Shown here piece by piece: positions 22,655-28,008 of a stretch of 45,220 bases of DNA. How positions within the stretch are numbered: the first letter of the stretch is position 1; every line of letters starts with the position of its first letter. Source of the DNA: a bacterium (GTDB lineage Bacteria; Chloroflexota; Dormibacteria; Aeolococcales; Bog-877); the NCBI GenBank assembly GCA_021809895.1, contig JAJZJU010000007.1, positions 1-45,220 of the forward strand. The letters run 5' to 3'. The position numbers and the translations under genes are program-made. A model generated the notes under the pieces. The model made no database searches, was not told the origin of the DNA, and saw nothing but the letters and a program-made list of their open reading frames with translations.

Positions 22655-22688
22655 TTGACCCCTCCCCACGGATAAATCCGGGGGATTC
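22655..22688 (-). repeat. IS right-end hairpin with guide and cleavage site
   Basis: Read on the minus strand: GAAT (22688-22685), hairpin CCCC-c-GGAT-tt-ATCC-gt-GGGG (22684-22664), linker, TCAA (22658-22655). Guide, imperfect stem and terminal tetranucleotide match the IS608 right-end plan. Confidence 0.75.
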
Positions 22689-22860
22689 CCGTCTCGCCCC
22701 TACTGTCTCGCTGACCGCCCATCGCTTAGGCGGCCGTTGCCGTAGGCAGGGGTTGTACGAGCTTCGGCCGAGCAGCTCTGTCGGAGCGCCTGTTGAGGCG
22801 CTTGGCGATCCGTACCACTGAGCGACGCCCCGAAGGACTACGTCGGTGGACTTGCTGCTT
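22655..22860 (-). ncRNA. Probable TnpB-associated omega (re) RNA
   Basis: In IS605 elements the RNA that guides TnpB is made from the 3' end of tnpB through the right-end hairpin, with the guide taken from the DNA just past the terminal TCAA. The right end here has the expected hairpin directly after the tnpB stop codon. The 5' limit given is a guess based on usual lengths; only the 3' scaffold end at 22655 is supported by sequence. Confidence 0.4.
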
Positions 22861-24318
22861 CGCGGCGCCAGCCGCGTTCCTCGACGCCGGCGCCCCACCG
22901 AGGTCGTGGCGGGTGGAGTAGGCCGCGTTGGCTTCCCCCGCGTCGAGGGTGTCGATGCCGTCTTTGGGCTCCACGAAGAACCCTAGGAATGCGGAGAACA
23001 GGTCCCGGTCCGCCACCACCCCGCAGGGACACCTGTGGGTCCGCTCGGACAGGGGCTTCTTGGCTTGGCGCGCGCAGATGCAGGTCTGGGAGAGTGCAGT
23101 GGTCCTGGGGTCGTACTCGTAGAGTCCGCCACCGGCGCTTTCAGCCTTGTAGCGGAGCTTGGCGACGAACGAACCAGGGGCGCGGTCCCGGACCGACTTT
23201 GGGAAGCGCTTCTGCCATGCGACGTAGTTGAGCTTCTCGGCCCGAAGGGTCGGGCCGAGGCCGATGAGCTGGTTGGCGAGCTGGCAGTGCTCGGTGTCGC
23301 GGCGGGCGGAGAGGACCCTGTGGAGCTCGCCAACCAGCACCTGGGTGCGCTGGGCGTTGTGGGAGCGCTCGTTCCAATCGCAGCGGCCTGACTTGTGGCG
23401 ACGCTGGGCGTCGAAGCAGCTCGGGCTGCCCTTCCTGTGCTGGCGGTCCAGCTTCCGCTGGGCGCGACGCAGGGCCTTCGCGGCGTAGGCGACGCCCGGC
23501 GCCAGCTGGCAGTGTTGTGCGGTCGTCTGGCTCACCACGTGGACCGTGCTCGGGCCCATGTCGATGCTGACCTGCTCAGTTCCCACGGAGTGGCGGACCG
23601 GCGGTGGGCCGTCCAGGACGAACTGGGCGCGGTAGGCCCAACGGCCCCGGACCTTGGCCCGAGTGATCCTGCAGGAGATGAGCTTGCCTGCGGCGACGAG
23701 GCCCGTGATCCGGTCCAGTTCCGCCTGCTCGTCATGGCTCTTGGGCTGGGCGAAGGGAACGACAAATCCGCGGCCCCACTGCAATCCTGTGAGATTGTCC
23801 TTGGTGAACTTCACTTTCAGCGAGCCGCACCCGTCCTTGCACTCGAGTGAGTGGATGCCCCTTCTTTGGGCCTTGAAGCGAGGCTTGCCGCCCTTGCCGT
23901 AGTGCCACCTCTCGGCCGCCAGGAATGCCCGGCGGGCCAGCGTCTGGGCTTCTTGGCAGAGCACTTGGTCTCTCACCCAGGACTGGCGCAGCCACGAGCC
24001 GAACGACATGATCGCGCTCTCGGTGAAGCCGTGGGCACAGTCGATGGCATCGAATGCCTGGTGGCGAGCCAAGCCTTGCGGTGATTCCGGCTTGCCCTTG
24101 GGCAAGGCTTTGGCTTCCTCGAAGCGGGGGTCCGCCCGCAGTGCCCGGTCGCGCCGGAGTGCCTCGCCCAGGCAGGCGTTGTAGACCCGCAGACCGCCGT
24201 AGAAGCGAGTGTCGATCACCGAGCGCATCCGCGGCGTCGGGCGCAGGGGAAGTTGTGCAACATGGGTCGGCGCTCCCCGCGGCCGTTTGCGAGCGCGGGG
24301 CTTGCGCTCCCCGCTCAT
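22726..24318 (-). CDS. tnpB: TnpB-type RNA-guided nuclease of the IS605 element
   Basis: A 530-residue TnpB with an N-terminal basic helical region (to about 240) and a split RuvC nuclease. The first acidic residue is Asp253 in VSIDMGPSTVHVV, the second Glu361 in RAEKLNYVAWQKRF, the third probably Asp439 in VADRDLFSAF. The zinc ribbon between the last two has paired C-x-C motifs, C413/C415 and C430/C432, in SQTCICARQAKKPLSERTHR. All three catalytic acids are therefore present, and the frame is open throughout. It is longer than the common 400-residue TnpBs, with a Ser/Arg-rich extension after residue 455. TnpB proteins are programmable nucleases that favour retention of the element. ATG 24318 overlaps the tnpA stop. 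Confidence 0.85.
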   Translation of the reverse strand: MSGERKPRARKRPRGAPTHVAQLPLRPTPRMRSVIDTRFYGGLRVYNACLGEALRRDRALRADPRFEEAKALPKGKPESPQGLARHQAFDAIDCAHGFTESAIMSFGSWLRQSWVRDQVLCQEAQTLARRAFLAAERWHYGKGGKPRFKAQRRGIHSLECKDGCGSLKVKFTKDNLTGLQWGRGFVVPFAQPKSHDEQAELDRITGLVAAGKLISCRITRAKVRGRWAYRAQFVLDGPPPVRHSVGTEQVSIDMGPSTVHVVSQTTAQHCQLAPGVAYAAKALRRAQRKLDRQHRKGSPSCFDAQRRHKSGRCDWNERSHNAQRTQVLVGELHRVLSARRDTEHCQLANQLIGLGPTLRAEKLNYVAWQKRFPKSVRDRAPGSFVAKLRYKAESAGGGLYEYDPRTTALSQTCICARQAKKPLSERTHRCPCGVVADRDLFSAFLGFFVEPKDGIDTLDAGEANAAYSTRHDLGGAPASRNAAGAAKQQVHRRSPSGRRSVVRIAKRLNRRSDRAARPKLVQPLPTATAA

Positions 24319-24716
24319 CGGTTTTTCTGCTCCGCGACGTACTGCTTCACGACCTCAAGGCTCGCACCGCCGACGGTGGCCACAAAGTAGCTGTTCGTCC
24401 AAAGCGTGGGCAGCCGGGACCGCAGGCTGGGAAACTCTTTGCGGAGCAATCTGCTCGTGTGTCCTTTGACGGCTTTGACCAGACGGTGGATCCCCAACTG
24501 AGGGTCCACCTCAACTAGCAGTTGGACGCGGTCAGGCATGGTCTCCATCTCAATGAGCCACGCCCCCTTGTTGGCGACCGCTTCTCGGATCAGTTCCTTC
24601 AGCCGCATCTCGACGTCCCCGGTGAGCACCCCGCGCCGATACTTCGGGCACCACACCACGTGGTAGGCGCAGCGGAACGTGACGTTGGCATTCGATCGCA
24701 GAGTTGCGCCAGCCAT
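24315..24716 (-). CDS. tnpA: IS200-like TnpA transposase with substituted HUH motif
   Basis: A 133-residue Y1 transposase by overall sequence: CAYHVVWCPKYRRGVL near the N-terminus, GIHRLVKAVKGHTSRLLR, and SRLPTLWTNSYFVATVGG. The nucleophile Tyr126 is present in VVKQYVAEQK. However, the metal-binding HUH motif, normally MPDHVHLLV, here reads MPDRVQLLV: Arg63 and Gln65 replace both histidines. Without them the protein is predicted unable to nick DNA. ATG 24716 is preferred over the ATG at 24728, which falls inside the left-end hairpin. The gene is otherwise undamaged, so either this copy decayed recently or the protein has kept a binding role. Confidence 0.85.
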   Translation of the reverse strand: MAGATLRSNANVTFRCAYHVVWCPKYRRGVLTGDVEMRLKELIREAVANKGAWLIEMETMPDRVQLLVEVDPQLGIHRLVKAVKGHTSRLLRKEFPSLRSRLPTLWTNSYFVATVGGASLEVVKQYVAEQKNR

Positions 24717-24726
24717 CCCCAACAGC

Positions 24727-24750
24727 ATACGCTCCAGGCGTATCTACGCC
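24727..24750 (-). promoter_or_regulatory. Two mutually exclusive hairpins just before tnpA
   Basis: GGCGTA-tc-TACGCC (24737-24750) and ATACGC-tccag-GCGTAT (24727-24743) share bases 24738-24743, so only one can form at a time. They sit 11-34 bases upstream of the tnpA ATG. Such structures could limit tnpA translation or form part of the left end. Confidence 0.4.
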
Positions 24751-24789
24751 ACACGTTCGTTCCCTACGTCTCTCCGCCAGACTCGCTCA

Positions 24790-24814
24790 CCCCATGTCTA
24801 AAGCCAGGGGCTTG
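24790..24814 (-). repeat. IS left-end hairpin with guide
   Basis: On the minus strand CAAG (24814-24811) precedes CCCC-TGGC-ttta-GACA-t-GGGG (24810-24790), an imperfect stem with one unpaired T. This matches the hairpin type at the right end and the known IS608 left end (guide plus CCCC...GGGG hairpin). Confidence 0.65.
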
Positions 24815-24862
24815 CGCTCGCCACATGGTCAGAGTCAATTGGATTTTCGGCGACGCCCTCGC

Positions 24863-26095
24863 TCAGGGCATCGGAATTGTGTCTCCCCTGGAGAGGGTGG
24901 GCACCGAGACCACGACCGTCTCCGGGTACTTGACCCCCGCTCCGGTGTTGAGCACCACCACCTCCTCACCCTCATCGATCCAACCCTGCTGGCGCAGGCG
25001 CTCCGCGGCGGCGAAGCAGGCCGCCCCTTCCGGGCAGATGAACGCGCCCTCCAACCGCCCCACCCGCGCCTGGGCGCGCAGGATCTCCTCATCATCAACG
25101 GCCACCGCACAGCCCTGGGTCGCCCGCAGTGCGCTCAGGATCATGAAGTCCCCAAGCGCCTTGGGTACGTTGATCCCAAAGGCCACGGTGGTGGCTTCCG
25201 CCCAGGCTTGGGAGACCTCGTCGCCGTTCTGCCATGCTCTCACGATGGGGGCGCAGCCGCTGGCCTGCACGCTCACCAGGCGAGGCATTTTCTCCCCGAT
25301 CCAGCCCATCTCGCGACACTCCTGGAGGGCCTTGTGGATGCCAATGAGGCCGACCCCGCCCCCCGTCGGGTACAGGATCACGTCCGGGACGCGCCAGCCG
25401 AGCTGCTCGAAGAGCTCCAGCCCCATGGTCTTCTTCCCCTCCAATCGGTATGGCTCCTTGAGGGTGGAGCTGTCGAAGTAGCCCTGGGCGCGGACCGCCT
25501 CTGCGATCATGGCGCCGGCGTCATTGATGAGACCGTCCACCAGGTACAACCGGGCCCCGGAGATCGCGCACTCTGCCCTGGTGATGGCGGGGGCGTCAGT
25601 CGGCATCGCAATGAGCGCCTCGATGCCCGCCCGAGCAGCGTAAACCGCCCAGGCCGCCCCGGCATTCCCGTTGGTCGGCATGGCGATCCGGCGCACCCCG
25701 AGCTCGCGGGCCCGGGAGACACCCACGGCAGCTCCCCTGGCCTTGAAGCTGCCGGTCGGCAACAGCCCTTCGTCCTTCATCAGGAGTCGCGGCAGCCCCA
25801 TCTGGCGCCCCACTTCAGTCATGGGCAGCAACGGCGTCATCCCCTCTCCAAAGGTCACAACCGATTCCTCTTTGGAAACCGGCAGCAGTTCGTGGTAACG
25901 CCAGAGGCTGGCTGGGCGATCCCGAAAGTCGGCGGGTGCAACCGCGGCCGCGACTCTGGCCAGGTCGTAGCGGGCCAGCAGAGGTGCACCGCACTCGCAC
26001 AGTCCCTGGGGCACCCCAGCGTCGTACTCACGCTGGCAACGCCCGCATTCGAGGTGGTCCAGATAGCTGTAAATCAACTTATTGGTGATCTCCAA
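24863..26095 (-). CDS. thrC: Threonine synthase
   Basis: A 410-residue PLP enzyme converting O-phosphohomoserine to threonine. An N-terminal zinc-ribbon-like segment (LECGRCQREYD...LCECGAPLLARYD) comes first, as in many type II threonine synthases. Then come the PLP lysine Lys118 in TGSFKARG, the substrate stretch PTNGNAGAAWAVYAARAG and the phosphate-binding glycine loop PTGGGVGLIG. The C-terminus contains CPEGAACFAA, typical of the family. The start may be TTG 26095 or TTG 26077; the latter has GGAG 12 bases in front. It is the last of four minus-strand genes with cysK, cysE and the LLM oxidoreductase, but 115 bases separate it from cysK. Confidence 0.9.
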   Translation of the reverse strand: MEITNKLIYSYLDHLECGRCQREYDAGVPQGLCECGAPLLARYDLARVAAAVAPADFRDRPASLWRYHELLPVSKEESVVTFGEGMTPLLPMTEVGRQMGLPRLLMKDEGLLPTGSFKARGAAVGVSRARELGVRRIAMPTNGNAGAAWAVYAARAGIEALIAMPTDAPAITRAECAISGARLYLVDGLINDAGAMIAEAVRAQGYFDSSTLKEPYRLEGKKTMGLELFEQLGWRVPDVILYPTGGGVGLIGIHKALQECREMGWIGEKMPRLVSVQASGCAPIVRAWQNGDEVSQAWAEATTVAFGINVPKALGDFMILSALRATQGCAVAVDDEEILRAQARVGRLEGAFICPEGAACFAAAERLRQQGWIDEGEEVVVLNTGAGVKYPETVVVSVPTLSRGDTIPMP

Positions 26096-26210
26096 TTACC
26101 GCCGCAACAACCGCCCTGTACGCGCCGCGGCGCGCCTTCTCACCCCGCCATCCCGGCCCGCACGGGATCGTCATCGGTCCCAGGGAACGCGTTCGTGGTG
26201 TTCCCAACGC

Positions 26211-27125
26211 TCAGTCGAAGAGCGCGTCGATGGAGAGGTAGCGCTCTCCGCTGTCGTAGCTGAAGGTGAGGACCCGTGCCCCGTCAGCCATCTGGGGCGC
26301 CAGCGCCGCCACCGCCGCCAGGGATGCGCCCGAGGAAACACCCACCAGGATCCCCTCCTCCCGGGCACAGCGCCTGGCAAAGTCATACGCATCCTTGGCA
26401 TCGACCTTGACGATGCCGTTGAGAAGGTCGGTCCGCATCACTCCGGGGACGAACCCTGCGCCGATCCCCTGTATGGGGTGCGGCGAGTGCTGGCCGCCGG
26501 AGAGCACCGGGGAGAGGCTGGGCTCGACGGCGTAGACCTGAAGCTTGGGCCAGGTCTGCTTAAGCACCTCGGCGCAGCCGGTGATATGGCCGCCGGTGCC
26601 AACTCCGGTGACCAGATAGTCCAGCCCTTCCGGGAAGTCCTGAGCTATCTCCTCAGCGGTGGTGCGGCGGTGGATCTCCACATTGGCCTGGTTGTCGAAC
26701 TGCATGGGCATCCAGGCCCCCTCGGTGGCGGCGACGATCTCCTCGGCCCTGGCGATGGCGCCCCGCATCCCCAGCTCGCGCGGGGTCAGGTCCAGCTCGG
26801 CCCCGTAGGCGGTCATCAGCTTGCGCCGCTCCATGGAGAAGGACTCGGGCATGACCAGGATCAGGCGGTAGCCCTTGACCGCGGCCACCAGGGCCAGGCC
26901 GATCCCGGTATTACCTGAGGTTGGCTCGACGATCACCGAGCTGGCGGTCAGGATGCCGCGGCGTTCCGCGTCTTCGACCATCGCCAGAGCAATCCGGTCC
27001 TTGATGCTGCCACCGGGATTCACCCGCTCCTGCTTGGCCCACACCTGGACCCTGGGGTCGAAAAGGTGGTTGATGCGCACTTCCGGGGTGCGTCCCACGG
27101 TTTCCAGAATGCTGTCGGCTCTCAT
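26211..27125 (-). CDS. cysK: Cysteine synthase A (O-acetylserine sulfhydrylase)
   Basis: A 304-residue PLP enzyme making cysteine from O-acetylserine and sulfide. The Schiff-base lysine is Lys42 in [11 protein letters not shown]; the substrate loop is [12 protein letters not shown], the phosphate-binding loop [11 protein letters not shown], and the C-terminal serine is in GVSSGAS. Length and motifs are those of CysK/CysM. It begins 34 bases after the serine acetyltransferase stop codon, so the two steps of cysteine synthesis are encoded together. ATG 27125 follows GGGAGG at 27130-27135. Confidence 0.95.
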
Positions 27126-27159
27126 GGCACCTCCCTTGGTCTCGGTTGCAGGCCCGTTC

Positions 27160-28008
27160 TCAGATGACGAAGTCCAGCAGTTGATCGCCCTCGCTCACTT
27201 TGCGCACCCTGACCGCGCTGCTGTGATAGACCAGAGAGTATGGGGAGACGCTCTGGGTCAGCCAGACGTTGCCCCCCACCACGCTGTCGTGACCCACCAC
27301 CGTGTCGCCCCCGAGCACGGTCGCGTTGGCGTAAATCACGACCCTGTCCTCAATGGTCGGATGACGCTTGGTGCCGGCGGCCAGCTTGCTGACGCTGAGC
27401 GCGCCCAGGGTGACTCCCTGATAGATCTTGACCTCGTCTCCCAGCACCGCGGTCTCGCCGATGACGATCCCGGTGCCGTGGTCGATGCAGAAGGAACGGC
27501 CGATGGACGCTCCCGGGTGAATGTCTATCCCGGTCCTCGTGTGTGCAACCTCAGCCAGCAGCCGGGGCAGGACCGGGACCTCCAGGTGGTACAGGTGGTG
27601 GGCGACCCGATGAGTGGCGATGGCCATGAAGCCCGGGTAGGCGGCAACCACCTCGTCAAGGCTCTCCGCGGCCGGATCGCCGGCGACGATCGCATCAGCG
27701 TCGAGCTGGACGCGGGCGTACAGGTGCGGAAGCTCGGCCGCGAACTGGCCCGCCACCTCCTCAGCATGTGGCCGCTGGAGGCCCGGCTGCAAAAGCCGAG
27801 CCAGCTCCCACCGCACCAACTCCAGCCGCGCCTTGATCTCCTCAAGTGTCCCGGCGGCTTCTTCCGCGAGCTGCGGGAACAGTAACCCCAGAAGTCCATC
27901 CACAAAGTGGGCCACATCGCGCTTCAACGGCAGGGAGCGGGCCGGCGGGCGACAACTGTCCGCCAGAACCTGGGCGAACTCAGACTCACTCACATTTGAC
28001 GCGGACAT
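27160..28008 (-). CDS. cysE: Serine O-acetyltransferase
   Basis: A 282-residue left-handed beta-helix acetyltransferase that makes O-acetylserine from serine and acetyl-CoA. The N-terminal helical part (to about 150) includes [17 protein letters not shown], followed by hexapeptide repeats containing the catalytic region [31 protein letters not shown] and the loop GVTLGALS. The lysine-rich tip [16 protein letters not shown] precedes the last coils. It resembles the longer EpsC-type enzymes. The C-terminus ends in DFVI; a terminal isoleucine is what lets CysE insert into the CysK active site, consistent with its neighbour. It is co-directional with and directly upstream of cysK. Confidence 0.94.

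What the first reader, a model, noticed from the sequence alone, without database searches (positions are those of the whole stretch)
24315..24716. IS200-type TnpA with both HUH histidines replaced
The family motif MPDHVHLLV reads MPDRVQLLV, so both metal-binding histidines are lost (Arg63, Gln65), while the rest of the protein, including the nucleophile Tyr126, is intact and the frame is open. A dead nicking enzyme beside an apparently intact TnpB suggests an element kept for TnpB or on the way to domestication. The codons CGC and CAA were read directly from the sequence.
Basis: partly seen in the sequence, partly recalled or inferred. Interest (0 to 1): 0.6.

Follow-up and report, generated by a model that had tools for sequence, protein, structure and literature searches.

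The report
Transposon copy with broken cutting-enzyme motif
This is a small bacterial jumping-gene copy whose DNA-cutting protein has lost both of its metal-holding histidines; comparison with relatives shows that losing one of these histidines is a recurrent event in this protein family, so the copy is most likely a crippled but still hitch-hiking element rather than a gene adopted by the cell.

Summary
The ORF at 24728-24315(-) is an IS200/IS605 TnpA in which R67 and Q69 replace the two HUH histidines (IS608 H64/H66); Y130 and Q134 (IS608 Y127/Q131) are intact, and tnpB overlaps with a complete RuvC triad. The element runs from 24827 to 22655(-), with hairpins, target TGAC and end TCAA.
Three relatives with the same ends lie at unrelated sites. 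A 98.3% identical copy in a sister species shares R67 but keeps H69. The other two read QVH (same genome) and HVR. So R67 predates the spread to different sites, while Q69 is seen only in the window copy. TnpA of the window/sister pair looks relaxed.
HUH loss is recurrent: 16 of 92 TnpAs have a changed histidine (at least 13 events), while Tyr and Gln never change. On viral contigs, 0 altered against 99 intact. In Micromonospora, QVH elements sit at three sites under normal constraint, so His1-to-Gln may be functional.
Best reading: a cis-defective IS copy with intact ends, moved in trans or before full loss. Domestication and 'kept for TnpB' are not demonstrated: two sibling copies have frameshifted tnpB beside open tnpA, although tnpB-only relatives exist in the family.

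The parts
22655..24827 (-). whole IS200/IS605-type element (2173 bp): left end at 24827, right end TCAA at 22655
   Evidence: Alignment boundaries shared with three other copies at unrelated sites
24828..24831 (-). target tetranucleotide TGAC just 5' of the left end
   Evidence: TGAC present at this place in all four copies with otherwise different flanks
24789..24811 (-). left-end hairpin, CCCC/GGGG stem, preceded by CAAG
   Evidence: Sequence and fold; conserved in all four copies
24315..24728 (-). tnpA, Y1 transposase of 137 aa (133 aa from the ATG at 24716)
   Evidence: Pfam Y1_Tnp 133 bits, NCBIfam IS200 139 bits
24522..24530 (-). degenerate HUH motif R67-V68-Q69 (CGC GTC CAA)
   Evidence: aligned to IS608 H64-I-H66
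24339..24341 (-). nucleophile Tyr130, intact; Gln134 at 24327-24329 also intact
22726..24318 (-). tnpB, 530 aa, overlaps tnpA by ATGA; RuvC residues D253/E361/D439 and the zinc-finger cysteines are intact
   Evidence: NCBIfam guided_TnpB 83.5 bits (cut-off 100), Pfam Cas12f1-like_TNB; motif alignment with nine relatives
22655..22688 (-). right end: guide-like GAAT (22685-22688), hairpin CCCCCGGATTTATCCGTGGGG (22664-22684), cleavage site TCAA (22655-22658)
   Evidence: GAAT and TCAA equal the IS608 right guide and cleavage site given in PMC5934647

Best explanation
This is a cis-defective copy of an ordinary tnpA+tnpB IS200/IS605 element. Its TnpA lost the metal-binding HUH pair in two steps, H67R before the element reached its present sites and H69Q afterwards in the window lineage. 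It is probably unable to nick on its own. Both ends (hairpins, TGAC, TCAA) and tnpB are intact, so the copy can still be mobilised in trans by an HUH-intact TnpA. Because the active site is shared between subunits, the Tyr-bearing helix of a dead subunit could still serve a wild-type partner. Shown: the residues, the shared R67, the different insertion sites, the intact ends and the raised dN/dS. Inferred: loss of activity, the order of the two changes, and mobilisation in trans.
For: R67/Q69 align to IS608 metal ligands H64/H66. PMC5934647 reports metal coordination by H64, H66, D61 and Q131 and a catalytic site assembled in trans. The sister copy at another site shares R67 and keeps H69; other shared residues group the two tnpA genes (G33, N53). 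TnpA dN/dS is 0.47 (11 N, 8 S) between window and sister; 11 N of 19 is unlikely under the family baseline (P=0.003 at w=0.12, 0.02 at w=0.17) and compatible with neutrality (P=0.09). HUH-altered TnpAs are recurrent on chromosomes (16/92 rows, at least 13 changes) but absent from viral contigs (0 against 99). Ends are intact. tnpB-only relatives with the same type of ends exist in the bacterial family, so elements without their own tnpA are found there.
Against: No HUH-intact TnpA of this subfamily was found in either genome, although both are incomplete MAGs (86% and 92%) and repeats are often lost from such assemblies. The QVH elements of Micromonospora show that one HUH change is compatible with normal constraint and spread, so a changed HUH does not automatically mean dead. 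Few changes underlie the relaxation test, one other HVH group reaches dN/dS 0.39, and very close pairs tend to show raised dN/dS anyway.
Confidence: 0.6

Rival explanations
1. HUH-variant TnpA is still active: Gln (and perhaps Arg with Gln) can complete or bypass the metal site, as in HUQ Rep proteins, and the element moves by itself.
For: QVH tnpA+tnpB elements at three sites in Micromonospora, dS about 0.55-0.6 apart, with dN/dS 0.11-0.14 like HVH relatives. Gln is the commonest first-His change in the sample (7 of 9 rows). HUQ is a known variant of HUH (PMC10833120). R67 copies lie at two sites in two species.
Against: Arg is not a usual metal ligand, and the window copy loses both histidines. 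dN/dS is raised for the R67 pair. No altered motif was found on viral contigs. One HVH row (L213, broken tnpA) nests within the QVH clade, so Q may have arisen more than once.
Confidence: 0.2
2. The element is retained for TnpB (RNA-guided nuclease acting as a retention or gene-drive device), with tnpA left to decay.
For: tnpB open with triad intact; window and sister TnpB 99% identical; tnpB-only relatives in G009 and G006.
Against: tnpB is frameshifted in both other copies, G000:C14 and G002:C24, while tnpA is open. Window/sister tnpB differences are 7.5 N to 0.5 S, with no sign of purifying selection. The high tnpB identity reflects a mosaic, because synonymous divergence differs too: 8/107 in tnpA against about 0.5/410 in tnpB.
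Confidence: 0.1
3. TnpA is domesticated as a DNA-binding repressor (dominant negative) that binds LE/RE hairpins without cutting.
For: Open frame, most invariant residues of the family conserved, Tyr and Gln retained.
Against: No fixed locus and no conserved neighbourhood: four copies, four flanks. dN/dS of the R67 pair is elevated. The motif is altered differently in different copies.
Confidence: 0.06
4. Assembly or sequencing artefact, for example a chimera of IS copies collapsed in a short-read MAG.
For: Fragmented assembly of 159 contigs. The abrupt change from about 5% to 0% divergence at the tnpA/tnpB junction could come from repeat collapse.
Against: R67 with the same codon is present in another assembly; frame open; the two tnpA genes share other residues not found in the remaining copies.
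Confidence: 0.04

Closest known systems
IS608 (Helicobacter pylori; IS200/IS605 family)
   Same: Y1 TnpA, Tyr and Gln of the YxxxQ motif, tnpA then tnpB, subterminal hairpins, right guide GAAT and right cleavage site TCAA
   Different: HUH is H-I-H in IS608 and R-V-Q here; target TTAC there, TGAC here
tnpA+tnpB element of an Acidimicrobiales MAG (L037/L133)
   Same: Nearest HVH relative found: TnpA 77%, TnpB 49% identity
   Different: Intact HVH motif
QVH elements of Micromonospora (L053/L054, L143, L058)
   Same: First HUH histidine replaced, Tyr and Gln kept, tnpB present
   Different: Second histidine kept; strong purifying selection; a different TnpB (405 aa)
HUQ Rep endonucleases of CRESS-DNA viruses (e.g. 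smacovirus Rep, PMC10833120)
   Same: Gln in place of a HUH histidine
   Different: Gln replaces only the second His; here the first His is also lost
tnpB-only IS elements (IS1341-like)
   Same: No functional TnpA of their own; relatives occur in the same bacterial family (G009, G006)
   Different: Here tnpA is still present and open

Membership tests
IS200/IS605 insertion sequences (by descent) | Y1_Tnp (IS200-type) TnpA | tested here: met
IS200/IS605 insertion sequences (by descent) | Subterminal hairpins and insertion 3' of a short fixed target | tested here: met
   Hairpins at both ends; TGAC left of all four copies and TCAA at the right end
IS200/IS605 insertion sequences (by descent) | No target-site duplication, shown against an empty site | tested here: inconclusive
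   No orthologous empty site found
IS200/IS605 insertion sequences (by descent) | Adjacent tnpB with RuvC triad and zinc finger | tested here: met
   the NCBIfam guided_TnpB score of 83.5 is below its cut-off of 100
HUH endonuclease (catalytically competent) | Two metal-binding histidines, HUH | tested here: not met
   R67-V-Q69
HUH endonuclease (catalytically competent) | Nucleophilic Tyr and Gln of the YxxxQ motif | tested here: met
   Y130, Q134
HUH endonuclease (catalytically competent) | ssDNA cleavage and joining | not testable with these tools
   Needs biochemistry
HUQ variant | First His kept, second replaced by Gln | tested here: not met
   First position is Arg
Domesticated TnpA (TnpAREP/RAYT-like) | REP-associated, Y---NP motif, no IS ends | tested here: not met
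   YxxxQ motif, full IS ends, copies at several sites; the TnpAREP signature is given in PMC6006769

The most novel reading that the evidence does not exclude
The HUH pair of IS200/IS605 TnpA is a labile part of an otherwise invariant active site. A 'QUH' form (first His to Gln) is a functional transposase variant that has arisen repeatedly and spread. In HUH-less subunits the retained Tyr/Gln helix could work in mixed dimers with an intact subunit, so that 'dead' copies take part in transposition.
Probability: 0.25. Interest if true: 0.6.

Novelty: new variant of a known kind. Interest (0 to 1): 0.38.

Why it matters
The HUH motif gives this enzyme superfamily its name and is normally treated as indispensable. 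Here it is the part of the TnpA active site that changes most often, while Tyr and Gln never changed in 91 sequences. If some of these variants are active, annotation by motif is misleading and the metal site is more flexible than thought. If they are dead, they are natural dead-TnpA elements beside an intact TnpB, useful for separating what TnpA and TnpB each contribute to IS persistence.

Tried and rejected
(1) Empty site: the flanking helicase has an 81% orthologue in G002, but the sequence upstream of it is unrelated, and the neighbouring threonine synthase has no close orthologue in the genus; no orthologous empty site was found. (2) tnpA against tnpB rates as evidence of selection: rejected, because synonymous sites differ as strongly as all sites, pointing to a mosaic or collapsed repeat with a junction near 24312-24324. 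(3) 'R/Q shared by a lineage': R67 is shared by one sister copy only and Q69 by none; the QVH rows of other actinobacteria are separate events on the tree. (4) Altered motifs on viral contigs: the seven DNA pattern matches were not TnpA. (5) A QVH pattern search of 395 genomes of the class found only its own centre. (6) An Rfam scan of the element found only a sub-threshold hit. (8) Structure prediction was not run, as it would not decide activity.

Full report
Observation. The ORF 24728-24315 on the minus strand encodes a 137-aa IS200-type TnpA (Pfam Y1_Tnp 133 bits; NCBIfam IS200 139 bits). Its motif is MPD-R67-V-Q69-LLV, codons CGC and CAA. In the alignment with IS608 TnpA R67, Q69, Y130 and Q134 take the places of H64, H66, Y127 and Q131. 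In IS608 the metal is held by H64, H66, D61 and Q131, and the active site is assembled in trans, Tyr from one subunit and HUH from the other (PMC5934647). Two ligands are therefore lost and the nucleophile is kept. The finding is real.

The element. Comparison with three other copies fixes the ends: the element runs from 24827 to 22655 on the minus strand, preceded by TGAC and ending in TCAA, with a hairpin near each end. The right end has GAAT before its hairpin; GAAT and TCAA are the right guide and cleavage sites of IS608. tnpB (24318-22726) overlaps tnpA by ATGA, is open for 530 aa and keeps the RuvC residues D253, E361, D439 and the zinc-finger cysteines.

Copies. G002:C21, in a genome of the same genus, is 98.3% identical over 2177 bp with unrelated flanks; its motif is RVH. 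G000:C14, in the window's own genome, is 83.5% identical with the same ends; its motif is QVH. G002:C24 is about 75% identical; its motif is HVR. For scale, the flanking helicase is 81% identical as protein between G000 and G002, so the 98.3% pair moved between genomes recently, most simply by horizontal transfer. R67 is present at both sites together with other residues shared by that pair. It therefore most simply predates the spread, while Q69 is seen only in the window.

Selection. Window against sister tnpA gives 19 differences, 11 nonsynonymous and 8 synonymous, dN/dS 0.47. The main HVH comparison set gives 0.05-0.18; one other HVH group reaches 0.39. Under w=0.12 the chance of 11 or more nonsynonymous changes is 0.003; under neutrality the chance of 11 or fewer is 0.09. 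This fits relaxed selection but rests on few changes. tnpB has 8 differences, about 7.5 of them nonsynonymous. The low tnpB divergence cannot be read as constraint, because synonymous divergence also drops from 8/107 to about 0.5/410 at a sharp junction near 24312-24324, followed by 970 bp without a difference. The element is a mosaic or a collapsed repeat.

How unusual is it? In 92 distinct TnpAs at least 45% identical to the window protein, Tyr130 and Gln134 never changed (0/91), whereas the first His changed in 9 (7 Gln, 2 Arg) and the second in 7 (3 Arg, 3 Gln, 1 Asn). At least 13 changes of motif state are needed on the tree, which is poorly resolved. A motif-pattern scan of 395 genomes of the Actinomycete class gave about 6 altered of 37 matches, some of them in decayed copies. 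With equal flanking sequence, the genome loci held 12 altered to 57 intact and viral contigs 0 to 99 (Fisher P about 1e-5). Caveats: most genome loci were chosen by similarity to the window protein, one of six search seeds included the Tyr, four of the altered rows are the window's own lineage, and the two collections differ in taxonomy.

Are altered motifs always dead? Probably not. In Micromonospora, QVH elements with tnpA and tnpB both open lie at three different sites. Their tnpA genes differ by dS 0.55-0.6 with dN/dS 0.11-0.14, as in intact relatives. They form a clade with full support that also holds one HVH copy with a broken tnpA. His1-to-Gln therefore looks tolerated, perhaps functional. 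No such support exists for Arg.

Kept for TnpB? Two facts speak against it: both other copies have frameshifted tnpB beside open tnpA, and tnpB shows no purifying selection between window and sister. One fact speaks for it: G009 and G006, of another genus in the same family, carry tnpB-only relatives with hairpin ends of the same type and no tnpA, so tnpB-bearing elements do persist without their own tnpA in this bacterial family.

Conclusion. The window copy is best read as a cis-defective IS200/IS605 element with intact ends, whose TnpA lost HUH in two steps and which depends, or depended, on another TnpA to move. Inactivity and mobilisation in trans are inferences. The broader and more interesting point is that the HUH pair is the most labile part of the TnpA active site in this group. 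I found no description of this in the papers searched, which is a limited library.

Noticed in passing
window 24312-24324 against L114 (G002:C21): Sharp junction between a 5% diverged left-end+tnpA block and a 970-bp identical tnpB block: a mosaic element or a collapsed repeat.
   Followed up: partly
L325 (G009:C21:1-4000), 300-1916: tnpB-only relative (58% identity) with hairpin ends and no tnpA; the RuvC-III Asp reads Asn (PRNRFSAF), so it may be a nuclease-dead TnpB.
   Followed up: partly
L209, L210, L211, L212 (Micromonospora): QVH tnpA+tnpB elements at three sites under normal purifying selection: candidate functional QUH transposases.
   Followed up: yes
L116 (G000:C14) and L115 (G002:C24): Sibling copies with open but HUH-altered tnpA (QVH, HVR) and frameshifted tnpB.
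   Followed up: yes
window 24863-28008: Threonine synthase-like, cysteine synthase-like and serine acetyltransferase-like genes lie in a row next to the insertion (read from the translations; no search was run on their function).
   Followed up: no
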